From the NCBI GenBank assembly GCA_922989275.2, contig OV277872.1, positions 33,273,619 through 33,337,618 on the forward strand: 64,000 bases of DNA. Direction: 5' to 3'. The notes under the pieces were generated by a model that saw only the letters and a list, made by a program, of their open reading frames with translations, did no database searches and was not told where the DNA came from. Of this stretch, positions 1,705-63,215 are shown one piece after another (positions within the stretch are counted from its first letter, which is position 1; the number at the start of each line of letters is the position of its first letter). The translations under genes and the position numbers were made by a program. Origin of the DNA: Gari tellinella (Eukaryota; Mollusca; Bivalvia; Cardiida; Psammobiidae).

Positions 1705-2052
1705 CAGCGTTCCCTCTCTACAACGGCCCTCCCAATAACGACTCCCTCTTTACAACGACCCTTGTCTCAGTTCCCAAAACCGGACAATTATGTCTAACGC
1801 TTTTACTGCTGCAATGTCGTCTGCTTAAAATTGTCGTCGGCTGTTTTTCTTAAAATTACATATAAGTGGACATTTTGATAGAATAAATATATTTAATATA
1901 ATTTATGAGTGACAAACAGCTTGAATCCAGATCAGACGCCGCGTTTGCAAATATAAGCCAAGTCTTTATTTTCCCTCTCTATAACGACTACCTCCGAACA
2001 ACAAACACAATCTGTGTCTCCCATTGGTTGTCGTTGTAGAGAGGGAGCACTG
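1705..2052. mobile_element. TA-flanked MITE, family H, copy 1
   Basis: Ends are CAGCGTTCCCTCTCTACAAC and its inverse, with TA at 1703-1704 and 2053-2054. The interior holds the left arm of the GATCAGACGCCG hairpin (about 1915-1945) followed directly by TTTGCAAAT, so the right arm has been deleted. Compare the intact hairpin in copy 3 (33771-34136). Confidence 0.85.
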
Positions 2053-2090
2053 TATAACAAAACCATTCCTCAAGAAAGTTTCTAGTTTCC

Positions 2091-2349
2091 TTAACCCAGT
2101 ACCCCATAGCTTGTTTTAAATTTTGAAGATAGGTGATCACTTAAAGCAGGTTGAAAGTAAAGCAGAATGTGCCTTAAGGCACATTCTGCTTTACTTTCAA
2201 CCTGCTTTAAGCTACCATCTGCTAAAATAAAGAGAATATTTCTTATGAAACATATTTATAACTGTCTATTAAATTTGAACTGTTTTCTTCAGTGGAGCAA
2301 TGAATCTAAGGTGTTAATGTCATTGTGTATTTATGGGGTAATGGGTTAA
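2091..2349 (+). mobile_element. Family A MITE (TTAA-flanked), full length
   Basis: Reference copy for family A. TTAA is followed by CCCAGTACCCCATAGC, and the right end is TATGGGGTAATGGG-TTAA, so the ends are inverted repeats with a TTAA duplication, the pattern of piggyBac-like elements. A near-perfect hairpin lies at about 2141-2213, with GTGCC-TTAA-GGCAC at its dyad. Nested insertions elsewhere (13890, 15803, 30625) confirm TTAA as the duplicated target. No transposase is encoded. Confidence 0.9.
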
Positions 2350-2389
2350 CACTCAGAGCAACTAATATCTGCTAAAAGTTCAGAAAACA

Positions 2390-2720
2390 TTTCAGAAGCT
2401 TTCTGCTTTACTTTCAGCTTATTTAAAGCAACTCCTTTTCATAAAGATGAATTTATATATACATGTATATGGCCCTACAGACTTCTCATTTGGATCTGGA
2501 TGTTGGTACAGTTGTATGTAGATAAAAACTATATACCCACTTGACTATGAATATCTATCATCTGAACTATTAAATTGGCTAATGAAATAAGGAAAAGTTG
2601 TCCAAAAGGATTAAGAATGTCACTTACTGTCAGACAGATTCTATAAGAAATCAGTGTAGACTCGGATAAGACAGGATCTATCTTATCTGGGTCAACATTG
2701 TTTTCAAAAAGCATTCATAT
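2390..2720. repeat. Decayed hairpin-MITE remnants
   Basis: The half-hairpin AGCTTTCTGCTTTACTTTCA at about 2398 resembles the A/J hairpin arm. A weak GACCCAGATAAGA-like inverted pair lies near 2640-2700 on the minus strand. The 61-codon frame here is a by-product. Confidence 0.4.
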
Positions 2721-2930
2721 ATATGCCAATTAAAGATTTTAGGATGAATGACATGTAAAATTCACCACACCTAACCAAATTGACCATACATTTATATACT
2801 AAAAAATTTGATCCACTAAACCAAATTCATGGTTTAACGTTTCAAGTGTCTTTGTTTTTCTGTCACTGTATTTTAAACCGGACAATATTGAAAGCAGCTA
2901 ATGAACCAAAGACTGCTTTTCAATGGCCTT

Positions 2931-3144
2931 TTAACCCTTAGCCCGCCAAATAAATTGTCGTCTGCTATATTTCTCGTCTGCTTCAAGTTTCAAAGTGCTT
3001 CAAAGTTGCTCAAAATTGCTGAAAATGTTGTCCGAGTGTCAAACAGCTTGGATCCGGATGAGACGCCGAGTTACTCGGCGTCTCATCCGGATCCAAGCTG
3101 TTTTCATATGGAGCTATAGTCGTGAGTGGCAGGCTAAGGGTTAA
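2931..3144 (+). mobile_element. Family C MITE (TTAA-flanked), CCCTTAGCCCGCC subtype
   Basis: TTAA at 2931-2934 and 3141-3144 bounds the inverted ends CCCTTAGCCCGCC and GGCAGGCTAAGGG. The centre (about 3038-3102) is the hairpin AAACAGCTTGGATCCGGATG / AGACGCCGAGTTACTCGGCG and its mirror. The CGTCTGC-rich left arm is shared with other C-group copies. Confidence 0.85.
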
Positions 3145-3374
3145 TAGAACTATCAAAATTGTGAGCTCATTTTCTCTAAGTGATCAAGTTCCCTCATTTA
3201 AACTTCCAACATACATGTAATTTATAAGATAGTTTTATTCTTTCAATGGTCCAGTAAAACTTGCATTCTGCAGTTACACAATGCAGAAACTATTCGGTCA
3301 TTTCAAGACAGATCACTAGTGCTTAATTCAGGACAAAGACAAAAGAAAGCTTCTACAGTCCTGGGCTTTCCGTA

Positions 3375-3609
3375 TAAACCCTTTATCCCATAGCCTGTCT
3401 CTATAGTGTTGAAGACAGGTGACGACTTATAGCAGGTTGAAAGTAAAGCAGAATGGGTCTTAATTAAGGCCCATTCTGCTTTTCTTTCAATCGATCTGCT
3501 TTGAGCTAGCCGACCATCTGATAGCGAAAAGACTTTAATTGGAACTATTTTGTTCAGAAGCGGAATAAATTAGAGGTGTAAAAGGTGTATTTATGGGGTA
3601 ATGGGTTAA
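3375..3609 (+). mobile_element. Family A MITE
   Basis: The left end is degraded (TAAACCCTTTATCCCATAGCC); the right end TATGGGGTAATGGGTTAA is intact. The hairpin at about 3431-3505 has a GGTCTTAATTAAGGCCC centre. Confidence 0.85.
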
Positions 3610-4069
3610 GCCACTATCTTTATGTAAGTGTATTTGATTCATCTTCATTTGAATGACTGTTATATTAGGATAAGTGTACTATTCAGAGGTACACTGTTTG
3701 CTTTTAGGAAACATATATATGCATGATTCAGGTTCAAATGGTTGAATTACCAACCTTTGAACTATTTACTAGTAATTGCACGACTTTTCGTCAACAACAT
3801 TAAGAATAAGAATGTTCAAGGCCTGCCAATATCATATATCTGTCAGTTATTTAAAGTGTTAAGCATGGCACAATAGTTAAACACACTGACCTGTGACAAG
3901 TTATTATTTAAACAAGTTCAACTTCAAACAATGTCATTGGGTATATGTGGCGTAAAGTTTCACTTCTCTTTCTTAGTGAATTCTTAACCCTGCTTAACAC
4001 TGAACTTTTTTTCTGAACATTTCCAAACTTTTTGCATTTATTTCTCTGTCAATCTCTATGTTAACATTT
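3610..4069. other. No recognisable feature
   Basis: AT-rich unique-looking sequence with no supported element or exon. Confidence 0.45.
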
Positions 4070-4262
4070 AAGAAATAATAAATCAATACCAGTGTTTTAT
4101 AGTGCAATTGAACATGGGTAGGAGTTGAGATGTGTAGTAATTTAATCACGAGGCCACTATTAGGCCGAGTGATTTAAGTACAAGCATCTTAACAGCTACC
4201 CGTGTTCGATTGCACGATAAAACACTGGTATTAATTATTATTTCGATTCTAACACTTCAATT
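4070..4262 (+). mobile_element. Family F palindromic element, copy 1
   Basis: Long inverted arms run from AAATAATAAATCAATACCAG and end CTGGTATTAATTATTATTTC. The loop region has CACGAGGCC...GGCCGAGTG. A conserved single-stranded tail GATTCTAACACTTCAAT follows the right arm and is also present in the copy at 56310-56500, so the element is larger than its palindrome. Confidence 0.7.
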
Positions 4263-6639: not shown

Positions 6640-7660
6640 TTAAAAGCAGACTCTGAGGTCAAGGTCACAAAGGTCAACTTTTTGTGTGCTTGGAAAGGTT
6701 TTGTCCATATACATATGCAAACCAAATATGAAAGTAAAACTGCAAAAGACAGGAATTATAAGAATTTGTAGAAACCTAAATGTGGGCCCTAAGTTCAAGG
6801 TCAAGATCACTGGGGTCAAACTGTTTAAAATGCACAGAAAGGTCTTGCCCATATACATATGCATACCGAATATATGAAAGGAATATCTCAATGGACATAG
6901 GAGTTAGAGGCATTTTGAGAATCATAAACACAGATTTTGAAACCAAAATGTGGGCCTTAACTGCAAGGTCAAGGTCACTGGGGTAAAAATATGTGTGTGC
7001 ATGGTAAGGTCTTGTCCATATACACATGTATACAAGATATGAAAGCAATATCTCGTGGCACATGGGAGTTATACACATTCAAGGTCAAGGTCACTGGGCT
7101 GAAACCTTTTATGCATGAAAAGGTATTGTCCGTATACACATGCATCCCAAATATGAAAGGAATATCTCAATGAACATGAGTTACAGGCATTTTTCAAAAC
7201 CTAAACACAGATTTCGAAACCTCAACACGGGTCCTAATTTCAAGGTCAAGGTCACAGGGGTAAAAAAAAACATTTATTTGCATGGCAAGGTCTTGTCCAT
7301 ATACACATGCATATCAGATATGAAAGGAATATCTCAATGGACATAAGAGTTATAATTATATAATTAAGCATTTTATGAAACCTAAACCCAGATTTCAAAA
7401 CCTAAAGGCGGGCCCTATGTTCAAGATCAAGGTCATCAGTAGGCTGAACATTTTTGTATGCATGATCAGGTATTTTTCGAAACCTAAACACAGATTTCGA
7501 AACCTAAACACAGGCCCTAAGTTCAAGGTCAAGGTCACAGGGGTCAAACCTTTTGTGTGCATGGAAAGGTCTTGTCCATATACAAACACATACCAAATAT
7601 GAAAGCAATCTCTGAAGGGACATATGAGTTATAAGCATTTTCTTAAAACTGCTAACGCAA
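6640..7660. repeat. Imperfect tandem repeat with AGGTCA direct repeats
   Basis: Seven diverged units contain AAACCTAAACACAGATTTCG, GGGCCCTAAGTTCAAGGTCA, CATGGAAAGGTCTTGTCCAT and ATATGAAAGGAATATCTCAA. Anchors fall near 6656, 6795, 6963, 7080, 7241, 7421 and 7523, so unit length varies from about 100 to 180 bp. Few stop codons occur, which creates overlapping frames on both strands that are not genes. The end (about 7665) has AACCGGAACGGCAACGCC. Confidence 0.85.
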
Positions 7661-10057: not shown

Positions 10058-10259
10058 AGAGTGCCAGACAAGAGGGAGTTATAACTGAGCAAATTCAACA
10101 TTTTCTAACTCATTTCAGCACCAAATCCTATTGTGTTACTACTCATTAGAATCGTCTATTCCAGACCATTCTAATGAGTAGTAACACCATAGGGTTAAAT
10201 GCAGAAATAAATATTTTAGTTTTTGATATACACATGTACTCCCCTTATCTGGAGCTCTG
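10058..10259 (-). mobile_element. Family D MITE
   Basis: Ends AGTGCCAGACAAGAGGGAGT and ACTCCCCTTATCTGGAGCTCT are inverted. The central inverted repeat TGTTACTACTCATTAGAATC / GATTCTAATGAGTAGTAACA (about 10134-10188) is broken by CATTCC-type changes at its tip. I found no clear target duplication. Confidence 0.8.
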
Positions 10260-10347
10260 AATAATAGACATCACACATACACACAATCAACCTCCCTATT
10301 TCAACCTTCCAGTGACTTGTTTATATGGAGGTGGCAGCTTAAACCGA

Positions 10348-10499
10348 AGTGTCTTTTAGCACATTTGAATTATTCCTCCGCTAAAGAAAATAGTTCCAAT
10401 TTATGGTCATAACCATTTACCAAAATAAATATTTCCTATAATGTTATCCTAGCAGATGGTAGCTTAAAACAGGCTGAACGTAAAGCAAAATGTGCCTTT
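10348..10499 (-). mobile_element. Family A left half, interrupted at its hairpin centre
   Basis: It reads GTGTCTTTTAGC, TTATTCCTCCGC, then the left hairpin arm up to AAATGTGCC, where the next A copy begins at TTTACCC. This matches the self-insertion at 15803. Confidence 0.65.
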
Positions 10500-10729
10500 A
10501 CCCAATACCGAATAGACAGTTTCTTGTTTTGAAGACAGATGACCACTTAAAGCAGCTTGAAAGTAAAGCAGAATGTGCCTTAAGGCACATTGTGCTTTAT
10601 TTTCAGCCTGCTTAAAATTATTAGTATTATACAAATTTATGACTTATAAATTGGAACTATTATTATCTTCAGCGGAAGAATAAATTGAGAGGCGTAAAAA
10701 GGCATTATATTAATGGGGTCATGGGTTAA
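10497..10729 (+). mobile_element. Family A MITE
   Basis: TTTA-CCCAATACCGAATAG to TTAATGGGGTCATGGG-TTAA; hairpin at about 10546-10615. Confidence 0.82.
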
Positions 10730-10977
10730 ACAAATGATCTCATTCCAACCAGTCATAAACAATAAATGAAGCTGAATTTAATGATCTCACCCAAGACCAG
10801 CTGATGTCATATCGCGAGACGAGCTCGTTTACTTTTACTATTAGTTTCATCAATTATGTAAGCCGTGATCTATGTACAGCATCGATATGTCAAGGAATGT
10901 GAGAGAGTAATGTAGGGGGTATGAATATTGATTAGACGTGGCAATTCAGGTGCAGTCTCCTCAACATTTAAGCCCTT

Positions 10978-11085
10978 CACCAACACTCGTAACGTATAGT
11001 GAAGGCATTTGCAAACAGTTTGGATCCTGATCAGGCCCCACTCAATGTGGGGCCTGATCAGGATCCAAGCTGTTTGTCACACGGA
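10978..11085 (+). mobile_element. Family C MITE, partial, GGCCCCAC-type hairpin
   Basis: TTAAGCCCTTCAC opens the element. The hairpin CAGTTTGGATCCTGATCAGG, CCCCACTCAATGTGGGG and mirror lies at about 11014-11077. Here GACGCCG is replaced by GGCCCCAC while the outer arms are conserved. Confidence 0.7.
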
Positions 11086-11288
11086 TCCTGATTTTGAAGA
11101 TAATTTTATAAGAAGATTGAGTTGATTTCAGAATTTAAGTGCATGACATTTTTCGGTTAAAGACAGAATATTCTGCATTGAACGGCCTATTACTCTTCAA
11201 TCTGCAGTACATACATACACTATGGTGTACTCTGCTATAGATTATGTCATCTGCTTAGGATAATTAGTAGAGTTTTATAGTGATTCTT

Positions 11289-11622
11289 TTAAATCATTAC
11301 CCAATAAATGCACTTTTTGTACCTTAATTAAATTAATTCTTCTAATGAACAAAATAGCTCCAGTTTAGACAGTTATGAATATGGATCATCAGAAATATTT
11401 TTTATACATCCTGGGTCACAGATAATATTAGATTAAAGCAGGTCGAAGTAAAGCAGAATGTGCCTTCCTTGCAGATAGTAGCTTAAAGCAAGCTGAAATT
11501 AATTAAAGAAAAATGTTCCCTAAGGCACATCATGCTAAATACTTTCAACCAGTGCTTTAATTGGTCAACTCCCTCTTTTGTAAACTAGAAACTGAGGTTT
11601 AAATAATGGGGTAATTGGTTAA
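11289..11622 (-). mobile_element. Family A MITE, diverged and partly duplicated
   Basis: TTAAATCATTACCCAATAAATGC to AATGGGGTAATTGG-TTAA. The hairpin arm is repeated (TTAAAGCAGG near 11436 and TTAAAGCAAG near 11474), consistent with an internal duplication. Confidence 0.7.
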
Positions 11623-11679
11623 ATGAGTTACTTTACAAAAGATCACCAACCTATCTCCTTGTTCATTGGATGTAATTTA

Positions 11680-11861
11680 AGGGCTCCAGAAAAAGGGGGT
11701 ATTTCAAACACTATTATCTTTCTTTCTGAATTAAACCCTATGGTGTGACTACTCATTAGAATTGTTTCTTTGAGAATATTCTAATGAGTAGTAACACCAT
11801 AGGATTTGATGAGAGAAAATGCTGGATTTGTTCAGTTTACTCCCTCTTATCTGGAGCCCTG
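11680..11861 (+). mobile_element. Family D MITE, array unit 1
   Basis: AGGGCTCCAGAAAAAGGGGG to CCCTCTTATCTGGAGCCCT. The inner repeat CACTACTCATTAGAAT pairs with ATTCTAATGAGTAGTAACAC. First of four head-to-tail units. Confidence 0.85.
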
Positions 11862-11890
11862 GGTGCTGAACACAAGTTTCTTTTATACAG

Positions 11891-12078
11891 AGCTCCAGAT
11901 AAGGGGAGTATTTCAAAAACTAAAATCTTTATTTCTGCATAAAACCTATGGTGTCACTACTCATTAGAATCGCCTCGAAGAGACGATTCTAATGAGTAGT
12001 AACACCATAGCATTTGGTGCTGAAATGAGTGAGAAAGCATTGAATTTGTTCAGTTTACTCCCTCTTATCTGGAGCCCT
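11891..12078 (+). mobile_element. Family D MITE, array unit 2
   Basis: Same ends as unit 1, with the perfect inner hairpin ...AGAATCG-CCTCGAAGAGACG-ATTCT. It is separated from its neighbours by the repeated spacer GGGTGCTGAACACAAGTTTC. Confidence 0.85.
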
Positions 12079-12108
12079 GGGTGCTGAACACAAGTTTCTT
12101 TTATACAG

Positions 12109-12251
12109 AGCTCCAGATAAGGGGAGTATTTCAAAAACTAAAATCTTTATTTCTGCATAAAACCTATGGTGTCAACACCATAGGAGTTGGTGTAGAAATG
12201 AGTGAGAAAGCATTGAATTTGTTCAGTTTACTCCCTCTTATCTGGAGCCCT
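12109..12251 (+). mobile_element. Family D MITE, array unit 3, hairpin excised
   Basis: Identical context to unit 2, but CTATGGTGTC runs directly into AACACCATAGG (about 12164-12185). The whole 45-bp inner hairpin is missing at its base. Confidence 0.85.
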
Positions 12252-12281
12252 GGGTGCTGAACACAAGTTTCTTTTATACAG

Positions 12282-12470
12282 AGCTCCAGATAAGGGGTGT
12301 ATTTCAAAAACTAAAATCTTTATATCTGCATAAAACCTATGGTGTCACTACTCATTAGAATCGTCTCGAAGAGACGATTCTAATGAGTAGTAACACCATA
12401 GGATTTGGTGCTGAAATGAGTGAGAAAGCATTGAATTTGTTCAGTTTACTCCCTCTTATCTGGAGCCCTG
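12282..12470 (+). mobile_element. Family D MITE, array unit 4
   Basis: Full unit with the hairpin restored (about 12337-12401). The 76-codon frame starting in it (12383-12613) is not a gene. Confidence 0.85.
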
Positions 12471-12765
12471 TTTTATATGAAAACATACTACACATATCAA
12501 AGACCCCATTCCCACGATCTTTTAAAAGTTTTGAAATGAGTATTTTAAATATGTTTAAAAGAACATCAAAGCATAACCATTCAGCTATACTTAAACTTGG
12601 CAGTGATGAATAATCAATTAGAACTCCTGATATTGAGCTCTAAAGGCATTTGTAATGATTAAACCTTTATCTCACAAAATTATTTTCTAATTTTAATTTT
12701 CTGCCCGAAGAAAAAATATCAAAATTCAGTTTTCATGAATTTTTTTTGGCTTATAAAACATTAAT

Positions 12766-15719: not shown

Positions 15720-16207
15720 TTAACCCATTATCCCATAGCCATTTTCTATTTTGGGAGACATGTGACCACTTAAAGCAGGTTGAAAGTAAAGCAGAATGTG
15801 CCTTAACCCTTTACCCAATACCCCGTTTATAACATAAAATACAGGTGTTCACTTAAAGCACATTCTGCTTTACTTTCAACCTGCTTTAAACTACCATCAA
15901 CTAGCTATATAGAAATAATTGTTATGGTAATTGTTCATGAGGGTATAAATTGGAACTATTTTCTTCAGCGGAGGAATAAATTCAATACGCTAAAAGTCGC
16001 TTCTATGGGGGAAAGGCTTAAGGCACATTCTGCTTTACTCTCAGCCTGCTTTAACTTTAAAGTTTAAGCTATCACCAGCTAGAATATTATACAGAAAATA
16101 TTTTTTATGATACATATTCATAACTCACAGTATAAATTGGAACTATTTTTCGTCAGTTGAGGAATAAATTAAAGGTGTAAAAAAGGTGTATCTATGGAGT
16201 AATTATT
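15720..16207 (+). mobile_element. Family A MITE interrupted at its hairpin dyad
   Basis: TTAA-CCCATTATCCCATAGCC...AGAATGTGCC, then the nested copy 15803-16021, then GGCACATTCTGC...CTATGGAGTAATTATTTAG. The insertion point is the TTAA at the exact centre of the hairpin. Confidence 0.88.
15803..16021 (+). mobile_element. Family A MITE nested at an A hairpin centre
   Basis: TTAA at 15803-15806 and 16018-16021; CCCTTTACCCAATACCCC to CTATGGGGGAAAGGC. Its own left hairpin arm is deleted (CACTTAAAGCACATTCTGC). Confidence 0.88.
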
Positions 16208-21576: not shown

Positions 21577-21990
21577 CAGTCAAACTTGTATCGGTCGAGT
21601 GACCACTGAACTAAGAAGCCAGCGAATCTTTAGAAACAGGTGACCGCTTAATGCGAGACAAAAGTACTACAGAAAAGCTCCTCTATGTTCTTTTTGTATT
21701 GCTTTTGTCGTATATTAAGTATCCACCTGTTATAAAGGCTGTTATGTACAGTAAAACCTCTCTATTACGACAACTATTTTAAAGAAGGCTAACTGGTTGT
21801 TTAAAAGACAGCTTAAAGCAAGGTGAACATCAAACAGAAAGCTCCTGAAGGAGCTTTCTGTTTTACTGTCACCTTTCATTAAGCAGTCACCTGCCTTAAC
21901 CCCTTGATAACTGACATAATTAAGTGGTCGTTATAGAGAGGTTTTACTGTATACTTTAGTTATAGGGGTCACTAAATTCAAGTTTGACTG
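21577..21990 (+). mobile_element. Family K element (TA-flanked) containing J
   Basis: CAGTCAAACTTGTATCGGTC to ATTCAAGTTTGACTG, with TA at 21575-21576 and 21991-21992. The inner hairpin is GACAAAAGTACTACAGAAAAGC...GTATTGCTTTTGTC. Element J (21749-21949) is inserted in its right half. Confidence 0.82.
21749..21949 (+). mobile_element. Family J element (TA-flanked), nested in K
   Basis: CAGTAAAACCTCTCTATTAC to AGAGAGGTTTTACTG, with TA at 21747-21748 and 21950-21951. The hairpin CTTAAAGCAAGGTGAACATC...GAAAGCTCCTGAAGGAGCTTTC...CACCTTTCATTAAG (about 21812-21881) follows the family A design inside quite different ends. Confidence 0.85.
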
Positions 21991-22455: not shown

Positions 22456-22706
22456 TTAACTCTTTCCTCCCTGAAACTTTAAATGGACAATTCCAGTTTC
22501 GATTTTTGTCTGGTCCATTTCTGGCTTTTAAGAGTTGTTTCTGTCAATTTTGGCATTACTGACAAACAGTGAAGACCCTGATCAGAGGGCTCCTTTCGGA
22601 GCCCTCTGATCTGGGTCTTCACTGTTTGTATAGGACATGTGTACTATCCACATGTACACTGTTTGAAAAGCACGCCTATATGCGGGACTAGGGTTCAAAG
22701 AGTTAA
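22456..22706 (+). mobile_element. Family B MITE, full length
   Basis: TTAA-CTCTTTCCTCCCTGAAAC to GGGTTCAAAGAG-TTAA; hairpin at about 22561-22630. Its right TTAA (22703-22706) is also the left TTAA of an A copy. Confidence 0.9.
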
Positions 22707-26153: not shown

Positions 26154-26603
26154 CAGTAAAACCTCTCTATTACGACGACTAAATTATGCCAATTATCAGG
26201 GAGTTATGGCAGGTGACTGCTAAAAGCAAGGTGATACAGTGGAGAATCTGTTATTCTTTCCCGTTTAAACGCAAACGTACGCAAACGCAAATCACTAAAA
26301 CGTAGAAAAGAACAACTTTTGGACAATTCTGATAATTCTTGTTTATCTTGGTGGCAAACAGTTTGGAGCCTGATCAGACGCCGGGTTATCCGGCGTCTGG
26401 TCTGGCTCCAAACTGTTTGTACTGCAAATAATAGTTTTAGCGTAAACGCGTTTATTGGGAAAGAATAACATATTCTCCACTGTAGTATAACAGGAAGATA
26501 CTCAAGGAGCTTTCTGTTTTATGTTCACCTTGCTTTTAGCTGGCAGCTGTCATTTTTACAGTCAATTAGCCTGCTTTTTAGTGGTCGAAATAAGAGTTTT
26601 ACT
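26154..26603 (+). mobile_element. Family J element split by family E
   Basis: TA-CAGTAAAACCTCTCTATTAC...CTAAAAGCAAGGTGA, then E, then GGAAGATACTCAAGGAGC-TTTCTGTTTTATG-TTCACCTTGC...AGAGTTTTACTA. The last G of the right end is mutated. Confidence 0.8.
26237..26482 (+). mobile_element. Family E MITE, 246 bp, copy 1
   Basis: Reference copy for family E. CAGTGGAGAATCTGTTATTC to AGAATAACATATTCTCCACTG, with TA at 26235-26236 and 26483-26484, a Tc1/mariner-type target. The left body is GTTTAAACGCAAACGTACGC. The central hairpin CAAACAGTTTGGAGCCTGAT, CAGACGCCGGGTTATCCGGC and mirror is at about 26354-26419. The right body is AGCGTAAACGCGTTTATTGG. There is no coding capacity; recurrent frames around it, on either strand, are shadows of the repeat. 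Confidence 0.92.
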
Positions 26604-28701: not shown

Positions 28702-28919
28702 TTAACCCCTTCACTGCCTTACTCCGAGCAGAGTAGTTTTTTGCAAACAGTTTGAATCCTGATCAGACGCCGCGAAACGCGGCGTCTGATCAGGATCCAA
28801 ACTGTTTGATACTCATTTCAATATTTCTTAAGTCAAAATACCTAAAAATTAAATTTGAGAAATAAATGCAGACGATAATTTGTTAAAATTGATGACGTCA
28901 CGTGCAGTGAAGGGGTTAA
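28702..28919 (+). mobile_element. Family C MITE, full length, CCCCTTCACTGC subtype
   Basis: Cleanest copy of the subtype: TTAA at 28702-28705 and 28916-28919, inverted ends CCCCTTCACTGC and GCAGTGAAGGGG. The perfect hairpin (about 28746-28808) has CCGCGAAACGCGG at its tip. GATGACGTCACG precedes the right end. Confidence 0.9.
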
Positions 28920-29689: not shown

Positions 29690-29915
29690 TTAACTCTTTG
29701 CATGCTGTGTATTTTTTTTCGTCTGCATCATTTTTCGTCTGCTTCTGTTCTAGAATTGGACATTTTGAAAAAATCTTTTAAATTTAGTGTCAGAATGGCA
29801 AACCGTTTGGGTCCTGATAAGACGCCGCATTATGCGGCGTCTCATATGGATTCAAACTGTTTGCACAGGTTATGCCTGTGGCAGCTATATCTGCCACTAG
29901 CGTGCAAATAGTTAA
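29690..29915 (+). mobile_element. Family C MITE, CTCTTTGCATGC subtype
   Basis: TTAA-CTCTTTGCATGCTG to TAGCGTGCAAATAG-TTAA. The hairpin CAAACCGTTTGGGTCCTGAT, AAGACGCCGCATTATGCGGC is at about 29799-29862. ATTTTCGTCTGC repeats form the left arm body. Confidence 0.85.
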
Positions 29916-30528: not shown

Positions 30529-31065
30529 CACTTTACCCCCAAAACCTTTTTCTAGTTTGGAAAAAATATGAACACTTAAAGCAGGTTGAAAGTAAAGCAG
30601 AATGCGTCTTACTTTCAAGCTGCTTTAACCCATTACCCCATAGCCGGATTCTAGTTTTGAAAATAGGTGACCACTTAAAGCAGGTTGAAAGTAAAGCAGA
30701 ATGTGCCTTAAGGCACATTCTGCTTTACTTTCAGCCTGCTTTAAGCTATCATCTGCTAGAATATAGAAAATAGTTCTTATCATACATTTTCATAACTGTG
30801 TAAATTGGAACTATTTTCCTCAGTGGAGAAATAATTCAAAGACGTAAAAGTCGTATTTATGGGGTAATGGGTTAAGCTATCATCTTAAACTTCTATTTCA
30901 TTTTATTTCTGTCGAACAATCATTTACTGGTATAACTGGTAGGTATGTGCTAGGATATAGAAAAATATATAGTGGTTCATACTCATGACTGTTTTAAAGT
31001 GAACTTTATTCAATAGAAGAATGACTTTAAGACTTAAAAAGGCATATTTATGGGATACAGGATTA
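30529..31065 (+). mobile_element. Family A MITE interrupted by another A copy
   Basis: TTTACCCCCAAAACC...GCGTCTTACTTTCAAGCTGC, nested copy, then GCTATCATCTTAAAC and the right body to TATGGGATACAGGATTAA. The hairpin of this copy is largely deleted. Confidence 0.75.
30625..30875 (+). mobile_element. Family A MITE nested in family A, full length
   Basis: TTAA at 30625-30628 and 30872-30875; CCCATTACCCCATAGCC to TATGGGGTAATGGG. The hairpin at about 30674-30746 is perfect through GTGCC-TTAA-GGCAC. Confidence 0.9.
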
Positions 31066-31132
31066 AATAGGAACAGGTAACCGTTATGTTTTGCTTACTG
31101 AACTTGAGTTTGACAAGGATTTAAACCAGTTA

Positions 31133-31488
31133 CAGCGCCCCCCCCTCTACAACAACATCCAATAGTAGACAAACATAGTGTGCGTTGTTCAGAAGGATTC
31201 GTTGTAGGGAGGGAATTTGGATAACATTTACAAATAGCTTAAATCCAGATCAGACGCCGCGTAACGCGGCGTCTGATCTAGATTCAAGCTGTTTGTCACT
31301 CGTCATTGAATTTTTAGTCCAAATGGCTATTATGTCACTTTGGAAAAAACAGCAGACGATAGCTTTAAGCAGACAACATTTAAGTCGTGAAAAGGTTGGA
31401 CATAACTGTCCTGTTTAGGGAACTGCGGCAATGGTCGTTGTAGAGAGGGAGTCGTTGTTGCGAGGGCCGTTCTAGAGAGGGAACACTG
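31133..31488. mobile_element. Family H MITE, copy 2, next to a splice donor
   Basis: CAGCGCCCCCCCCTCTAC to TCTAGAGAGGGAACACTG, with TA at 31131-31132 and 31489-31490. The interior has AGCTTAAATCCAGATCAGAC-GCCGCGTAACGCGG and mirror (about 31228-31293). In the DCX gene on the minus strand it lies in the intron. Only 12 bases separate its end from the exon boundary. Confidence 0.85.
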
Positions 31489-31500
31489 TATATAACATAC

Positions 31501-33383: not shown

Positions 33384-33596
33384 TTAACCCTTTGCCTGCT
33401 GGTCGCGACTTTATTGATTTTTGCAAACAGTTTAGATCAAGATCAGACACCGCGTAACGCGGTGTCTGATCTGGATCCAAACTGTTTGACATTCTTCTTT
33501 AGGTTTCTTTACTTATTAAATGTATACATCTAGATATGTCAAACTTTGCGGACGACAATTTCGAAGCAGACGACATCACCGCAGGATAAGGGTTAA
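33384..33596 (+). mobile_element. Family C MITE, full length
   Basis: TTAA at 33384-33387 and 33593-33596; CCCTTTGCCTGCTGG to CACCGCAGGATAAGGG. The hairpin at about 33424-33489 has CACCGCGTAACGCGGTG at its tip. Confidence 0.85.
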
Positions 33597-33770
33597 TGGA
33601 GTACGTGACAGTTGTGAATATTATTTACATTGTATTTTGTATTGGCGAGATACTGTTTGTATAGGAAAAAAAAAGTTCTGTTCTGTTCCGTTCATTATCC
33701 GTAACATCACATGAGTCGATTCATAGGGAATATACTGACTGAGACCAATAGCCTGATCAGTGTGCATGTA

Positions 33771-34136
33771 CAGTGTTCCCTCTCTACAACGGCCCTCCCA
33801 ACAACGACTCCATCCTTACAACGGTCATTTCCGCCATTCCCGAAACGGGACAATTATGTCTAGCACTTTTACAGCTGCAATATCGTCTTCTTAATGTTGT
33901 CGTCTATTTTTTTCTCTCAAAGTTACATATGAGTGGACATTTTGATAGAATAAATATAATGTTGAGTGACAAACAGCTTGAACCCAGAACAGACGCCGCA
34001 TGCGGCGTCTGATCTGGATTCAAGCTGTTTGCAAATGTAAGCATAGTCTTAAATTTCCTTCTCTATAACGACTCCCTCCGAACAACACACACAATAGGTG
34101 TCTCCAATTGAGTGTCGTAGTAGAGAGGGAGTGCAT
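33771..34136. mobile_element. Family H MITE, copy 3
   Basis: TA-CAGTGTTCCCTCTCTACAAC to GTAGAGAGGGAGTGCATG-TA; the right tip is mutated. It carries a full hairpin AACAGCTTGAACCCAGAACA-GACGCCGCATGCGGCGTC...CAAGCTG (about 33970-34027). Confidence 0.82.
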
Positions 34137-34996
34137 GTATTTCATTGCAAAATCATGTATCGAGATGAAAATAGTAAGAGGCTTAAGTTGAATTAAATTG
34201 AGTTGAATTATTGAAATATGGCGTTGAACAAAATCAGCCAGCTACATGTACCAACCAAAACAACAACAGCAACACCAACCCAACAAGCATTCGCTGTACA
34301 TAGACAAACAGCATGTAAAGTAATCAAGATATATCGGTAAGGAATTTCCTAATCAGTGGAAAAGACATTATTCTTTCTATGTAAACTATAAACAAAATGT
34401 AATTCGAATGCAATGAAGATAAAATGTAGTACATGTAAATGACATTGTTTTTGAAAATATTGACGATTTGTTGAAATTTGAATAGCAAACTGTTTGGAAC
34501 CTGATCAGGCGCCGAGTTACTCGGCGTCTGATCAGGCTCCAAACTGTTTTACAATCACCGGGTTATAAGTGTAACGTCTACTCACTTTTAGATGGACTGA
34601 TGCTCGTTATCACTGAGACCAAAACGAAATAATGTTTTTATTATATTCTAAGTAAAATAGCTATATTGCTTTTAATATAAAATATATGAAAACATTTTAA
34701 TACATTAATAATGTATGTATTAATCTTAAAATGTGCAATTAAATAAAAATTAATATATAATCTGATTTTTTTATTGTCAACTTAAAGATTTTGGTTCCTA
34801 AATTTATATTAAACAGTTAAATTTCTCATTTCGATTGTATAATCTATGATTTAATCAAGGTGGTCTGTCTGATTATATCCGATGACCGATTATGAAAATC
34901 AGTCGATTATGAAACCCTGGTTCATTTCAGCTCGTAAGTTTCAAGGGTGAACGAGTAAAGCATCACTGCTTATCGATTGAAGCTGAGAGAGTTACG
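34137..34996. other. AT-rich spacer with one hairpin
   Basis: The only element is an isolated hairpin AACTGTTTGGAACCTGATCA-GGCGCCGAGTTACTCGGCG and mirror at about 34487-34550. 34560-34860 is very AT-rich with TTAAAATATA-like runs. Confidence 0.5.
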
Positions 34997-44934: not shown

Positions 44935-45258
44935 GATCATATTCAAGTCTGTCAGCTTTTGTTTTAAACCTATTTGATCAGAAAATAGAGCTTTTTTGCA
45001 ATGTAAATTGACAATAATTGCATTTTTATAGAGATTACGCCTACCATCTTGGAATAATTATTTGCTGTTTCTATATATATTTCCTTCAGAAAAGTGTTAT
45101 TATGTATCAAAATAATTGATCGGTTAACTTTTCGGTGTTTAAAAAAGCGTTCGAAATAAATTTCGCTCCTGCGAAAACTAATTTACTCCGACCGAAGAAG
45201 CTGAATATCGACATATTTTGCTGCTTGACTATTTTTTAAAATCATGTAATGCAAATGC

Positions 45259-45292
45259 AGGAACGTAGATTATAGATCTAATCTATGTTCCT
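45259..45292. repeat. Palindrome inside satellite unit (2 of 4)
   Basis: Same sequence as the insert at 44901. Confidence 0.9.
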
Positions 45293-46956: not shown

Positions 46957-46990
46957 AGGAACGTAGATTATAGATCTAATCTACGTTCCT
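46957..46990. repeat. Palindrome inside satellite unit (3 of 4)
   Basis: The right arm reads TAATCTACGTTCCT, so the arms pair perfectly; probably the ancestral form. Confidence 0.9.
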
Positions 46991-48321
46991 GATAATATTC
47001 ATGTCTGTCAGCTTTTGTTTTAAACTTATTTGAGCAGAAAATAGAGCTTTTTTTGCAATGTAAATTGCGATTATTGCATTTTTATAGAGATTCAGCCTAC
47101 CATCTTGGAATAATTATCTGCTGTTTCTATATATATTTCCTACAGAAAAGTGTTATTATGTATGAAAATAATTGATTGGTTAACTTTTCGGTTTATAAAA
47201 AAGCGTTCGAAATAAATTTTGCTTCTGCGATAGCTAATTTACTCCGACCGAAGAAGCTGAATGTCGACATATTTTGCTGCTTGACTATTTTTTAAAATCA
47301 TGTAATGCTAATTCATGTATTCCATAATATTCAAGTCTGTCACTGTGTCAGCTTTTGTTTTAAACCTATTTGAGCAGAAAATTGAGCTGATTTGGCTATA
47401 TAATTTGCCAATTCATGTAATTGCATTTTTTTAGAGATTACGCCTACCATCTTGGAATAATTATCTGCTGTTGCTATATATTTCCTTCAGAAAAGTGTTA
47501 TTATGTATCAAAATAATTAATCAGTTAACTTTTCGGTTTATAAAAAAGCGTTCGAAATAAATTTTGCTTCTGCGAAAGCTAATTTATTCTGACCGAAGAA
47601 GCTAAATGTCGACATAATTTGCCGCTTGACCATTTTTTAAAATCATGTAATGCTAATGCATGTTTATCATAATATTCAAGTCTGTCAGCTTTTGTTTTAA
47701 ACCTATTTGAGCAGAAAATAGAGCTGATTTGGCTATTTAATTTGCCAATAATTGCATTTTTATAGAGATAACGCCTACCATCTTGGAATAATTATCTGCT
47801 GTTTCTATATATTTCCTTCAGAAAAGTGGTATTATGTATCAAAATAATTGATCGGTTCACTTTTCGGTGTTTAAAAAAGCGTTCGAAATAAATTTTGCTC
47901 CTGCGAAAGCTAATTTACTCCGACCGAAGAAGCTGAATATCGACATATTTTGCTGCTTGACTATTTTTTAAAATCTTGTAATGCTAATGCATGTTTATCA
48001 TAATATTCAAGTCTGTCAGCTTTTGTTTTAAACCTATTTGATCAGAAAATTGAGCTGATTTGGCTATTTAATTTGCCAATAATTGCATTTTTATAGAGAT
48101 AACGCCTACCATCTTGGAATAATTATCTGCTGTTTCTATATATTTCCTTCAGAAAAGTGTTATTATGTATCAAAATAATTGATCGGTTAACTTTTCGGTG
48201 TTTAAAAAAGCGTTCGAAATAAATTTCGCTCCTGCGAAAGCTAATTTACTCCGACCGAAGAAGCTGAATGTCGACATATTTTGCTGCTTGACTATTTTTT
48301 AAAATCATGTAATGCAAATGC

Positions 48322-48355
48322 AGGAACGTAGATTATAGATCTAATCTATGTTCCT
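48322..48355. repeat. Palindrome inside satellite unit (4 of 4)
   Basis: Same mismatch as the first two inserts. Confidence 0.9.
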
Positions 48356-48883
48356 GATAATATTCAAGTCTGTCAGCTTTTGTTTTAAACCTATTTGAGC
48401 AGAAAATAGAGCTTTTTTTGCAATGTAAATTGCGATTATTGCATTTTTATAGAGATTCAGCCTACCATCTTGGAATATATATGCTGTTTCTATATATTTC
48501 CTTCAGAAAAAGTGTTATTTCAAAAAAGTTATCGGTTAACCAATAAATCATTAAATGCATTTTTATCGAGAATCGGCCTACCATCTTTAAGGGAATTTTC
48601 TGCTGTTACTATATTTCATTTTTTAGGGTAAATCTTCTTTCACCATATGCTAAACTTTGTTCAGTATTATATGACATATTGTAGACTTGATATTTTAGTT
48701 GTTTGTATATCTATATCCATAGTTTGAAGCTTTGTACGAGTTATACCGGTACATATTCGAGTTCCGATTTGTACCAGTGTCAGCGGCACAACTCTCAATT
48801 GTATCAGATTCTTTTGCTATATTGAACCTGTTAAAAATTGCTAGTCTAGAAATCTATACTCCTGATTTTTTAATCATTCTGTT

Positions 48884-52338: not shown

Positions 52339-52575
52339 AACAGACATATCCTGGGCCTATATTCTTTTATATAACGCATTTGAGATAAGTTTGATATAGT
52401 TCTCAAGCTTTTGATTGGTTAGATTTGGCCATTATTCATTTTTACTATTTATTTTGACAAGCTTTCGAGTAAATCGGCGTCTTCTCTATATGAAAACTAT
52501 TTGACAATCAGATGATCGTTTCTGAATGAATATGCAAATGCAGCAACTTTGAGCATTGTCGCATACGACATATTA

Positions 52576-52821
52576 CAGTGGAGAATCTGTTATTCTTTCC
52601 CGTTTAAACGCAAACGTACGCAAACGCAAAACACTAAAACGTAGAAAAGAACAACTTTTGGACAATTCTGATAATTCTTGTTTATCTTGGTGGCAAACAG
52701 TTTGGAGCCTGATCAGACGCCGGGTTACCCGGCGTCTGATCTGGCTCCAAACTGTTTGCACTGCAAATAATAGTTTTAGCGTAAACGCGTTTATTGGGAA
52801 AGAATAGCAGATTCTCCACTG
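52576..52821 (+). mobile_element. Family E MITE, 246 bp, copy 8
   Basis: TA at 52574-52575 and 52822-52823. Its right end has GAATAGCAG instead of GAATAACAG. Confidence 0.92.
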
Positions 52822-52824
52822 TAC

Positions 52825-53635: not shown

Positions 53636-53790
53636 TTACAGTCAATACTCGCTATCCTGACCACGCGCTAAAATAACCCATTGCTATGTTAGGACATGTG
53701 GTAGCTTAAAGCAGGGTGAAAGTAAAGCAGAAAGCTCCACAGGAGCTTTCTGCTTTACTTTCACCCAGCTTTAGGCACTCTAAATTAAAC
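53636..53790 (+). mobile_element. J/K-type hairpin element
   Basis: TACAGTCAATACTCGCTATC resembles a K-like left end. The hairpin GCTTAAAGCAGGGTGAAAGT...GAAAGCTCCACAGGAGCTTTC...CACCCAGCTTTA is at about 53703-53774. The 69-codon plus frame is a shadow. Confidence 0.65.
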
Positions 53791-55395: not shown

Positions 55396-55569
55396 ACCCT
55401 TTCACTGCCAAATTTTTCTTGAGATTTTTACCCCTTCACCGTTTCATTATCATCTGCTTCAATTTTGTTGTCTGTAATATCGTTTCAAAGTAGGAAAATA
55501 AGGCCTTATGAATGAAGAAATTACAAAACGAGTGTCAAACAGTTTGGATCCTGATCAGACGCCGCGTAA
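55396..55569 (+). mobile_element. Family C MITE, truncated at its hairpin
   Basis: AACCCTTTCACTGCC, CATCTGCTTCAATTTTGTTG and GTCAAACAGTTTGGATCCTG-ATCAGACGCCGCGTAAC, then an abrupt switch to E sequence. Confidence 0.7.
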
Positions 55570-55627
55570 CAGATTTATTAGAATAAAAACGCGTTTATTT
55601 TGAAGAAAAAACGTATTTTCCGCTGTA
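55569..55627 (+). mobile_element. Family E remnant (right end)
   Basis: AAAACGCGTTTATTTTGAAG and GTATTTTCCGCTG-TA. It is joined directly to a C-type hairpin arm, a chimera of the two families. Confidence 0.65.
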
Positions 55628-56309
55628 ACCATTACCGACACCAGGGGCCCATATTACATGTACAAAACGTCATACGACAAAATGGTCGTAAGTCAGATTC
55701 TAAAATTATCAATTATTATTTATTTCTCCATAAAATCATGTCTTGTGACATCTATTTGGAATCTTCTTTTCAAGACGATTCCAAATTATGACTGTTTGTA
55801 TCGTACGACGTTTAGTAAGACGGCCCTAACTAAATAAGCATTCTCTACTTTTCGACTAATTATTAAGAGAGTTAAAATTAGAAATCGAGATTTTCAAACA
55901 GAACATGTACATGTAGCATTTGTTCGGTGTATATGTACCCATTTGGTTTTGAGGGCGGTTTGAACTTTAGAACCCCAACCTCGGGTGTCTCTCTACTCTT
56001 CGAACTACAGGTACTTCTCACGTACAATAAGCCAAAGAAACAGTTTCAAGTGCATCTTGAAATGATATAAAACCTCTCAAAACGTTAATAACATGGTCCT
56101 CTGTCACGTGTTAGATACACAGATTGGGTATACAGGCACGTAAGTATGGCTTGAAGTGGAGAAATAGAACTTTTTTCATTACCTACTTGTTGATTCATTC
56201 GAAATTTAGTTTATTTAGTTGTAATATAGTTTTGTTTGTACATGTATACCGTTTTACAGGTGTTATTTAACTTGTTTAAACTAAAACGGAAATCAAACGC
56301 GATTTAATT
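55628..56309. other. No recognisable feature
   Basis: TTGGAATC-TTCTTTTCAAGAC-GATTCCAA at about 55757 is a small inverted repeat. No supported exon. Confidence 0.4.
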
Positions 56310-56890: not shown

Positions 56891-57124
56891 CTGCTAATAA
56901 AGATCAGGATTTATCCATCTGCCCAGAATTCTTAGTAGACTGGTTCGTGTATCGATAAATGAAATGATCCACAAGTGAATGTCATACCCCACAGGAGTTA
57001 GTTATTGTAGAGTAATCGGATGTTTGAACTGGATCCAATTTGTTCCATTAAACATAGAAGATAAAACATGTATACATCTTCTATACTTGTGGAGCTGTGG
57101 TTGTCAACTTGCTTGAAGCCGATA

Positions 57125-57355
57125 CAGTGGAGAATCTGTTAAATTTATTCTTTCCCGTTTAAACGCAAACGTACGCAAACGCATTGCACTAAAACATAGA
57201 AAAGGACAACTTTTCGACAATTTTGACTATTCATGTTGATCTGAGTGGCAAACAGTTTGGAGCCTGATCAGACGCCGGCTCCAAACTGTTTGCAATGGAA
57301 AAAATAGTTTTAGCGTAAACGCGTTTATTGGGAAAGAATAGCGTTTTCCCCACTG
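57125..57355 (+). mobile_element. Family E MITE, copy 9, hairpin tip deleted
   Basis: TA at 57123-57124 and 57356-57357. GATCAGACGCC-GGCTCCAAACTG shows loss of most of the right arm. It also has a 6-bp insertion AAATTT near the left end. Confidence 0.9.
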
Positions 57356-57514
57356 TAGAACTGTCCGAATACTGTCGATAGACTGTCGATAAATTTAGTG
57401 ACAAGAAAACAAAAGACTTTTATTTTAAAGATCATATTGTTTACAGATCTATTTCTGTGCCTGATGATTACATAATCGATGTTTGCATGAGCAGTAAATA
57501 TAAGTACAGCCACT

Positions 57515-57733
57515 TTAACCCCTTCACTGCCTTAACACGAGCACAACGGTTTTTTTGCAAACAGTTTGGATTCTGATCAGACGCCGCGTCACGCGGCGAC
57601 TGATCATGATCCAAACTGTTTGACACTAATTTCAATAGTTCTTCAGTCAAAATAGCAAAAATTAAAATTTAAGAAATAAAAGCAGACGATAATTGTTTAA
57701 AAAATGATGACGTCACAGCAGTGAAGGGGTTAA
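57515..57733 (+). mobile_element. Family C MITE, full length, CCCCTTCACTGC subtype
   Basis: TTAA at 57515-57518 and 57730-57733. The hairpin at about 57558-57621 has CCGCGTCACGCGG; GATGACGTCACAGCAGTGAAGGGG closes it. Confidence 0.9.
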
Positions 57734-60363: not shown

Positions 60364-60543
60364 CAGTCGAACTTCGATATCTCGAACTCGGTTAGGTCGA
60401 ACATAACCGTATTTCAAAGTTAAAACGTTTTAATTTTGAAATTCGGTTATGTTCGACTTGACCGAGCATGCAATAATGTAGTTTATGTGTCGACATATCG
60501 AATAGTTCGAGTTAAGCGAGGTCGAGATATCGAAGTTCGACTG
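60364..60543. mobile_element. Family I element (pogo-like), copy 3
   Basis: TA-CAGTCGAACTTCGATATCTC to GATATCGAAGTTCGACTG-TG. Two reading frames on opposite strands overlap it because it is palindromic. Confidence 0.85.
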
Positions 60544-61433: not shown

Positions 61434-61652
61434 CAGTGGAGAAAGCGTTATTCTTTCCCGTTTAAACGCAAACGTACGCAAACGCAAAGCACTAAAACGT
61501 AGAAAAGAACAACTTTTGGACAATTCTGAAAATGCATGTTTATCTTGGTGGCAAACAGTTTGGAACCTGATCTGGCTCCAAACTGTTTGTATTGGAAATA
61601 ATAGTTTTAGCGTAAACGCGTTTATTGGGAAAGAATAACGTTTTCTCCACTG
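61434..61652 (+). mobile_element. Family E MITE, copy 14, hairpin core deleted
   Basis: TA at 61432-61433 and 61653-61654. TTTGGAACCTGA-TCTGGCTCCAAAC lacks the whole 27-bp GACGCCG core; arms and ends are otherwise intact. Confidence 0.9.
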
Positions 61653-61729
61653 TAACCACTTGCCTTAAACACAAATCGCTATAGATGATTTACACATACA
61701 AGGGTTAACTTTCAGAAAAAAGTTGAATA

Positions 61730-61810
61730 TGAGTGCCAAGCAATTTTGGTCCAGATCAGACGCCGCGTTACTCGGCTTCAGATCTGGACCCATACTGTTT
61801 GCAAATGTTA
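61730..61810. repeat. Isolated C-type hairpin
   Basis: AGCAATTTTGGTCCAGATCA-GACGCCGCGTTACTCGGCTTC-AGATCTGGACC. Confidence 0.65.
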
Positions 61811-61829
61811 GCATTGTCTTGCCTAACTT

Positions 61830-62344
61830 TTAAAGAGGCTCGCAACCGGATCAAGCATTAAAAATAGTAATTTGTAAATATATGTCAAATGCTTATATAA
61901 ATGGGTAAAATTTAGTTTAGGATAATAAATTTCCAAAAAAAAAAAGAAGAGGCTTTGGTAGGATTCGAACCCGTGACCATCCATGCGGAGACAAAAATGA
62001 AAAATAAGGCACCGCCTTTACGCCCTCGGCTACGGACGCTTTCTATATATATGATAGCGAATTAACGTACTTCAATGATAGCTATTAATAGAACATTATT
62101 CGGTTCGGGTTTATGTCTGACCCCGTGTAGAGAAGCAACAACAACAACTATACCGTTAGCTAACGCTATGGAAAAACGATGGAAAATATCTAAAAAACTA
62201 AGATTCGGTGACGATTCTTGAGACGTTTTTTGGACTGATCATATTTTTTTAATGTCAAAAGCCAAATAATGCCACAAATTTGCTTTTATTTGAGTATTTT
62301 ATTTTATTTTGACAAGAACACCATCCGGTTGCGAGTCCCTTTAA
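61830..62344 (-). mobile_element. Family G element, copy 2, with tRNA-like module
   Basis: TTAA-AGAGGCTCGCAACCGGATC to CCGGTTGCGAGTCCCT-TTAA. The minus-strand tRNA-like part has A box TAGCCGAGGGC (about 62033) and B box GGGTTCGAATCCT (about 61968). The stretch between them differs strongly from copy 1, while the flanking body (GGTTTATGTCTGA, GATTCGGTGACGATTCTTGAG) is well conserved. Confidence 0.78.
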
Positions 62345-62582
62345 GGGTTTAGACAGACGATTTATTAAGGTTGTTAACGAAAATGTTAAGCATTTCTGTA
62401 TATGTAAAGGGAGGGGTGCGTTTAAGTGTGTCTTCGTGCATTTGACAGGTGGATTTATTTATTCGAGAGCATTGCTTGTAAATACTTTCACATTTTTTTT
62501 GATTTCAAACGTATCTATGCATTCTATAGAAACTCGTTCATGTTTTCTTTATCCTGTCTCACACAAACTCACTATATCATTT

Positions 62583-62650
62583 ACAAACAGTTTGGATCCA
62601 GATCAGACGCCGATTAACTCGGCGTCTGATCAGGACCCAAACTGTTTGAC
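62583..62650. repeat. Isolated C-type hairpin
   Basis: ACAAACAGTTTGGATCCAGA-TCAGACGCCGATTAACTCGG and mirror; AT-rich flanks without terminal repeats. Two plus-strand frames over it are shadows. Confidence 0.7.
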
Positions 62651-62966
62651 GATGTAATTTGAGTTTATTTAGATGAAACAGCAAAATGAACTTTTTTTTA
62701 CGACAAATTGTACAAATTTGGAGCACACAAGATATTAGATATTGAATGACTTGTACATTTCAAGTAGATCTATATTGGTGCGCATTCTCTATCTATATGT
62801 TATTACTTACAATGTCTGTTAATGTTTGCCCAACAATACTAAAATGTATTCTAAACCGTGTATGTTAATGTACTCTACAATAATTTGAAAAAGTAGTTAC
62901 TAGAAGCATAGCATAATGTTACATGTAACATCGACATCCCATGCAGAAACCTTTACGCAAATAGAT
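62651..62966. other. No recognisable feature
   Basis: AT-rich spacer. Confidence 0.4.
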
Positions 62967-62969
62967 GTA

Positions 62970-63215
62970 CAGTGGAGAATTTGTTATTCTTTCCCGTTTA
63001 AACGCAAACGTACGCAAACGCAAAGCACTAAAGCGTAGAAAAGAACAACTTTTGGACAATTCTGATAATTCTTGTTTATCTTGGTGGCAAACAGTTTGGA
63101 GCCTGATCAGACGCCGGGTTACCCGGCGTCTGATCTGGCTCCAAACTGTTTGTACTGCAAATAATAGTTTTAGCGTAAACGCGTTTATTGGGAAAGAATA
63201 ACACATTCTCCACTG
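62970..63215 (+). mobile_element. Family E MITE, 246 bp, copy 15
   Basis: TA at 62968-62969 and 63216-63217; differs from copy 8 at only a handful of positions. Confidence 0.92.

What the first reader, a model, noticed from the sequence alone, without database searches (positions are those of the whole stretch)
1915..63152. One hairpin cassette inside transposon families with unrelated ends
Seen: a long palindrome with arms CAAACAGTTTGGA(T/G)CC, (T/A)GATCAGACGCCG and mirror occurs more than 40 times. It is the centre of TTAA-flanked C elements (28702, 57515), TA-flanked E elements (26237, 62970) and TA-flanked H elements (31133, 33771). Family B keeps the outer CAAACAGT and inner GATCAGA with a different tip. 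The ends and body sequences of these families are otherwise unalike. Known: TTAA and TA duplications point to different transposase superfamilies. Inference: the hairpin is a module passed between families by recombination, insertion or template switching, or it has a function of its own (replication, small RNA, target for capture).
Basis: partly seen in the sequence, partly recalled or inferred. Interest (0 to 1): 0.78.

Follow-up and report, generated by a model that had tools for sequence, protein, structure and literature searches.

The report
Shared hairpin inside unrelated miniature transposons
In an animal genome, one short hairpin-forming DNA sequence sits inside small jumping genes whose ends belong to different transposon types; in one family it arrived when one jumping gene landed inside another, and its paired shape looks preserved by selection.

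Summary
A 65-bp near-perfect palindrome occurs as 35 type-A and 7 type-B hairpins. It lies inside TTAA-flanked elements (T, B) and TA-flanked elements (E, H).

The reading needs correction. (1) The T families are not unrelated: 15 T elements align end to end. In the 10 measured, cores stay 81% identical while arms fall to 49% and 46%. (2) H is a TA element with a T element nested in it: a T-arm profile not trained on H finds that arm in 3 of 3 H copies. (3) E (TA, 250 bp) has no detectable T arm. It shares the core (consensus 61 of 65) plus about 8 and 5 bp of flank in T polarity. E cores form one group among T cores, so capture was probably single.

The pairing looks maintained: both E/T consensus differences are compensated pairs, while 8 of 8 E singletons break pairs. 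A second hairpin (72 bp) also occurs in TTAA and TA families.

Best reading: TA elements capture TTAA hairpin MITEs, and the hairpin is what survives. Only the window was available; genome search did not complete.

The parts
28702..28919 (-). T (TTAA) element with intact hairpin core 28744-28808; short arm 42 bp, long arm 111 bp
57515..57733 (-). T (TTAA) element, core 57558-57622
33384..33596 (-). T (TTAA) element with another tip variant (TTAACCCTTTGCCTGC), core 33424-33488
2931..3144 (+). T (TTAA) element with tip TTAACCCTTAGCC, core 3040-3104
29690..29915 (+). T (TTAA) element with tip TTAACTCTTTGCATGC, core 29799-29863
22456..22706 (+). B (TTAA) element, 251 bp, core 22563-22628 with the tip GAGGGCTCC
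26235..26484 (+). E (TA) element, 250 bp, core 26355-26419; itself inserted in the hairpin of J element 26152 to about 26606
52574..52823 (+). E (TA) element with consensus-type core 52694-52758
62968..63217 (+). E (TA) element, core 63088-63152
57123..57357 (+). E element whose core flanks are closest to T (CCACTCA; score 15.1 against a null maximum of 13.7); tip of its core deleted
1703..2054 (+). H (TA) element; T long arm nested at 1795-1889; right half-core lost at the tip
31131..31490 (-). H (TA) element; T long arm nested at 31297-31395; intact core 31231-31295
33769..34139 (+). H (TA) element; T long arm nested at 33861-33967; core 33970-34031
55425..55629 (+). T/E hybrid: T long arm, left half-core 55536-55570, then E short arm 55567-55629 ending at an E terminus
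30625..30875 (+). K (TTAA) element carrying the second hairpin, core 30674-30745; end coordinate read
21747..21951 (-). J (TA) element carrying a relative of the K hairpin, core 21812-21883 (E=4.3e-11 to the K-core profile)
53705..53775 (+). K-type hairpin (E=2.6e-16) beside a TA-type terminus at 53637-53664; second terminus not found
752..1135 (+). TA element with a K element nested in it (K core 878-949); the K right end is not clear

Best explanation
The hairpin is the conserved heart of an old TTAA-flanked (piggyBac-type) MITE lineage (T, probably also B). It entered TA-flanked families when a TTAA hairpin MITE inserted into a TA element and the composite was then copied by the TA element's transposase. 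H shows an early stage (T arm still readable). E, and J for the second hairpin, are read as late stages in which the arms eroded and only the hairpin plus about 5-10 flanking bp stayed. The hairpin stayed because its paired form helps the copies that amplify. Since it works with two kinds of ends, the benefit probably does not depend on the transposase: for example cruciform or hairpin extrusion that brings the ends together or stalls a replication fork. Shown: shared core, common descent of T families, nesting in H, compensated changes. Inferred: late-stage status of E and J, selection on pairing, and the physical role.
For: T families align end to end with core identity 0.81 against 0.49 and 0.46 for the arms and 0.63 and 0.58 for the 16-bp ends (10 elements, 45 pairs). 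A T long-arm profile built without H hits 3 of 3 H copies at E=4.9e-9, 1.5e-7 and 2.8e-5, and the three copies share the T/shell junction. E and T core consensuses agree at 61 of 65, and the 4 differences form 2 compensated pairs. Flank polarity matches T in 16 of 16 E, 7 of 7 B and 2 of 2 H scored. 11 of 32 pairs show two-sided change; 42 such cells against 17.2 (sd 3.0) in shuffles, 0 of 500 reaching it. Within families changes break pairs: E 8 of 8 singletons, B 12 of 14, K 33 of 37. A second, unrelated hairpin is likewise in TTAA (K) and TA (J) elements.
Against: E carries no detectable T arm: none of 30 arms of 15 E copies has a T-profile hit above 5 bits, and longer-range tests were null in nearly all E copies. 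So E's route is inferred. In the core-anchored test one H copy (1913) did no better than its own shuffles, and 33970 was reached by 2 of 60. Copies are related, so the shuffle control overstates covariation (stated by the tool). Singletons in T include lineage changes, 9 of 35 compensated. No transposition or DNA-structure data exist here.
Confidence: 0.55

Rival explanations
1. Arm exchange at the hairpin: breaks or polymerase switches at the hairpin tip join the half of one element to the half of another, so the hairpin is the crossover point and not a nested remnant.
For: 55536 is T long arm plus left half-core, then E short arm in the right polarity (E-arm score 55 against a maximum of 30 in 1000 shuffles; T arm 34.7 bits leave-one-out). 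13 of 15 single-ended partial cores end within 8 nt of the tip, 6 within 3. 23196 joins a broken K hairpin to a right half-core and E short arm.
Against: A T/E hybrid has unmatched ends and need not transpose; the hybrid seen is single. Insertion plus deletion would give the same product. Local alignment favours stops near the tip. E cores form one group, so exchange is not frequent.
Confidence: 0.2
2. Hitchhiking plus arm-to-arm correction: the hairpin has no benefit; palindrome correction during replication keeps the arms alike and the core only looks selected.
For: Compensated changes are also what such correction would make.
Against: Resident copies show decay without correction: 10 changes in 10 E cores, 0 compensated. 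E cores carry one fixed mismatch (position 17/49) in 10 of 10 copies, which correction at each amplification should erase. It also does not explain why the core sequence itself is conserved against the arms.
Confidence: 0.12
3. Sequence-specific function: the core is a binding site for a host protein or a source of small RNA (or dsRNA) useful to the element.
For: 18 of 65 columns are invariant in 26 cores, more than pairing alone needs; strong single-strand folding, -29 to -39 kcal/mol for six hairpins.
Against: A second hairpin with another sequence shows the same behaviour, pointing to shape more than sequence. No RNA family matched beyond one tRNA. No small-RNA data were available.
Confidence: 0.1
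4. All families, E included, descend end to end from one element, and the ends diverged beyond recognition.
For: True for the T families. E, T and B share arm polarity, and all have one short and one long arm.
Against: TTAA and TA ends imply different transposase superfamilies (established knowledge), so the ends cannot drift gradually from one to the other; E arms give no T hits.
Confidence: 0.03

Closest known systems
CMITE families of Acropora (PMC2872659; parts 1-3 of 4 read)
   Same: TTAA-flanked MITEs with different TIRs and a conserved internal region of about 75 bp that is better conserved between families than the TIRs; a new element made by CMITE insertion (CMITE-IN).
   Different: There all families have TTAA ends. 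Here the core also occurs in TA-ended families, is a near-perfect palindrome with compensated changes, and a second unrelated palindrome repeats the pattern. The paper's text as read does not describe its core as a palindrome.
MER6 / V domain (PMC6887750; abstract, outline and section 2.4 read)
   Same: A conserved module moved from one kind of element into MITEs with unrelated ends.
   Different: The module is a SINE domain carried into a mariner MITE; not a palindrome and not TTAA to TA.
Ost35 Stowaway MITE (PMC3660474; passages only)
   Same: Internal MITE sequence was found to enhance transposition, so selection on an internal part is plausible.
   Different: No hairpin module shared between superfamilies is described in the passages seen.
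Nested MITEs and foldback-type elements such as Galileo (PMC4168063; passages only)
   Same: Exchange between copies and restructuring of repeats by recombination and repair.
   Different: Galileo palindromes are the TIRs themselves; here the hairpin is internal and separate from the TIRs.

Membership tests
MITE (non-autonomous, TIRs, target duplication, short, no coding) | Short elements with TIRs and target duplication in several copies | tested here: met
   E 250 bp, TA at both ends in 13 of 14 copies whose ends were located; T 213-226 bp in the 5 copies with both TTAA ends
MITE (non-autonomous, TIRs, target duplication, short, no coding) | Mobilised by a transposase encoded elsewhere | not testable with these tools
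   No autonomous partner sought outside the window; genome search did not complete (and later)
piggyBac/TTAA MITE (T, B, K) | TTAA duplication and CCC/CC(C/T)T-like terminus | tested here: met
   TTAACCC and TTAACTC termini; hallmark taken from PMC2872659
piggyBac/TTAA MITE (T, B, K) | Related autonomous piggyBac (Kolobok also uses TTAA, recalled) | not tested
   Superfamily assignment rests on ends alone
Tc1/mariner-type MITE (E, H, J) | TA duplication and matching TIRs | tested here: met
   TACAGTGG..., TACAGTGTTCCC..., TACAGTAAAACC...
CMITE-like group | Internal region better conserved between families than TIRs | tested here: met
   Core 0.81 against TIR 0.63 and 0.58 in 10 T elements
CMITE-like group | All families with TTAA duplication | tested here: not met
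   E and H carry the core with TA ends
Foldback element | Long TIRs that make up the palindrome | tested here: not met
   The palindrome is internal; TIRs are separate sequences
Hairpin as a mobile element of its own | Solo hairpins flanked by their own target duplication | tested here: inconclusive
   Most cores have recognisable T, E, B or H arms; several, such as 12775, 49962, 54259, 56735 and 62584, have no recognisable arm and were not shown to have duplications

The most novel reading that the evidence does not exclude
Central hairpins are portable amplification modules: a structure, largely independent of its sequence, that raises the success of a MITE whichever transposase moves it, so that it is captured across superfamilies and kept while arms and ends turn over. 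Two unrelated hairpins (65 and 72 bp) have done this in one genome.
Probability: 0.3. Interest if true: 0.85.

Novelty: new variant of a known kind. Interest (0 to 1): 0.55.

Why it matters
Why MITEs outnumber their autonomous partners is an old open question. A hairpin that is conserved by compensated changes while everything around it changes, and that is carried over from TTAA to TA elements twice, would point to a transposase-independent factor that can be tested directly by excision and insertion assays. It also gives a readable series (T, H, E) for how new MITE families form by nesting.

Tried and rejected
Host and relatives: exact-pattern scans of viral contigs with the core, the second hairpin and the E terminus, and of genome contigs with the core gave 0 hits; these collections are viral or prokaryotic, so this says little. 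A protein search with a spurious ORF through a core found no candidate. Two doublecortin-domain ORFs show an animal genome; that it is a bivalve is my guess, partly from a recalled peptide seen in bivalve gene models, for which no paper was found.

Rejected: chance palindromes; end-to-end descent of E and T; correction at every amplification; frequent exchange of cores. One suggestive E/T long-arm similarity (E57249, 1 of 200 shuffles) is 1 of 16 tests and was not used. A first count that 13 of 13 partial cores break near the tip rested on a hand list; the recount is 13 of 15, and notebook entry 4 still carries the old figure. One search used ends that were off in several of the 10 T elements; one search replaces it. 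Of the 15 T elements aligned, 10 were measured; the other 5 lack a usable end or core half.

Literature: search listings only; none of the listed titles describes a hairpin core shared by TTAA and TA MITEs, which is not proof of absence.
Full report
What is there. The core is a 65-bp near-perfect palindrome, CAAACAGTTTGGA(T/G)CC(A/T)GATCAGACGCCG, a 3-base loop and the mirror. Matches to its arms exceed shuffles by more than tenfold. A palindrome scan of the window gives 76 hairpins: 35 of this type (A), 7 of the related type B, 20 of a second type (C), 7 of a third (D) and 7 others. Six folded as single-stranded DNA give -29 to -39 kcal/mol, with z-scores of -12.6 to -16.2.

Families. T elements (TTAA) have a short arm of 40-56 bp, the core and a long arm of 91-119 bp in the 10 measured. 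Fifteen with visibly different tips align end to end, including a shared AGCAGACGA motif in the long arm. B elements (TTAA; 251 bp in four of the five with both ends located, 257 bp in the fifth) carry the related core. E elements (TA) are 250 bp when whole; 14 have both ends located and 13 of these have TA at both sides. H elements (TA) number 3.

Core against arms. In 10 T elements (45 pairs) the core is 0.81 identical, the long arm 0.49, the short arm 0.46 and the two 16-bp ends 0.63 and 0.58; the core exceeds the long arm in 43 of 45 pairs and the short arm in 45 of 45. The E consensus core matches the T consensus at 61 of 65 positions. In the core tree E forms one group (92% of 200 bootstrap trees; no branch strongly supported) among T cores, and T is spread around it. 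So the core did not circulate freely: it entered E probably once.

H is a nested element. A local alignment joins the 1913 left arm with the T element at 33424 (score 48; the largest of 1500 random pairs was 28). A T long-arm profile built without H finds that arm in all three H copies (E=4.9e-9, 1.5e-7, 2.8e-5). The three copies share the junction between shell and T arm, so the composite was copied as a unit. A weaker, core-anchored test was passed clearly only by 31231; 33970 was reached by 2 of 60 controls and 1913 failed. 1913 has extra bases near the core in the alignment, which may be why. The element at 752-1135 is a second case: a K element inside a TA shell, with the K right end unclear.

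E. None of 30 arms of 15 E copies has a T-profile hit above 5 bits. What E shares with T outside the palindrome is short: CCACTCA on the long-arm side and CAATG on the other, clearest in E57249 and E51527 (scores 15.1 and 13.5; null 99% point 3.4, maximum 13.7 of 4000). All 16 E, 7 B and 2 H copies scored fit T better in the same polarity than swapped, though related copies are not independent. This fits a T remnant worn down to its core, or transfer at the hairpin. The second route has one candidate: at 55536 a T long arm (34.7 bits, leave-one-out) and left half-core run straight into an E short arm, which aligns over 63 columns to an E terminus (score 55; maximum of 1000 shuffles 30; T short arms 15-21). 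Of 15 partial cores with one internal end, 13 end within 8 nt of the tip and 6 within 3; two (23763, 33008) do not. Local alignment may favour such stops.

Pairing. In 26 cores (24 distinct) 92.4% of pair cells are standard, 11 of 32 pairs have two-sided changes and 42 cells do, against 17.2 (sd 3.0) in shuffles, 0 of 500 reaching it; related sequences can exceed shuffles without structure. The E/T differences are two fully compensated pairs, 14/52 and 30/36. By contrast, changes private to single copies mostly break pairs: E 8 of 8, B 12 of 14, K 33 of 37, T 26 of 35. E cores keep a fixed T/T mismatch at 17/49 in 10 of 10 copies. So resident copies decay, amplification does not itself perfect the palindrome, and pairing is kept along the lineages that amplify. 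That is what selection on pairing predicts; it is inferred, not shown.

Generality. Hairpin C (72 bp, CTTAAAGCAGG...) is the centre of TTAA family K (16 copies aligned). A profile of 14 K cores also finds it in the TA element J at 21747-21951 (E=4.3e-11), in a second J at 26152 to about 26606 split by an E element (E=5.9e-5), and beside a TA-type end at 53637 (E=2.6e-16). K and J also share CAGGTGAC just outside the hairpin (my reading; not tested statistically). The sequences of A and C are unrelated by eye, so shape more than sequence seems to be what travels.

Known and new. CMITE of corals (PMC2872659) is the nearest precedent: TTAA MITEs with an internal region better conserved than the TIRs, and a new element made by insertion. 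Transfer of a module into MITEs is known from MER6, and an internal MITE sequence that enhances transposition from Ost35. What I did not find in nine literature searches (listings) is a palindromic core shared by TTAA and TA MITEs, twice in one genome. I file it as a new variant of a known kind.

Limits. All evidence is from one 64-kb window. The genome search did not answer in any of 15 attempts. Superfamily names rest on ends only. No functional data exist.

Noticed in passing
15769-16054: A K element (about 15803-16020) sits in the TTAA at the tip of another K hairpin, with both half-hairpins and the TTAA duplication visible; the C and B hairpin tips (CCTTAAGG) are themselves TTAA targets.
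   Followed up: partly
10112-12500, 17066, 37341, 58086: A third hairpin type (D, CTATGGTGTNACTACTCATTAGAATCG...), in part inside elements ending GAGCTCCAGATAAGGGGAGTA; part of it in a tandem array at 11683-12347.
   Followed up: no
38254-38326, 60387-60466: A fourth hairpin (TCGAACATAACCGTATTTCAAAG...); the 60387 copy lies beside a TACAGTCGAACTTCGATATCTCGAA end.
   Followed up: no
42915-48519: Tandem array of a 331-bp unit, about 16 copies.
   Followed up: no
20646-20984 (-) and 31383-31850 (-): Two ORFs with doublecortin (DCX) domains, E=1e-12 and 2.3e-11.
   Followed up: partly
57249, 58820, 59094, 61552: Four E copies have lost different pieces around the tip of the core, as if the hairpin were a fragile site.
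   Followed up: partly
23069-23125 (-): tRNA-like match in Rfam (36.1 bits).
   Followed up: no
6794-7354: Two-copy tandem repeat containing CAAGGTCAAGGTCACTGGGC.
   Followed up: no
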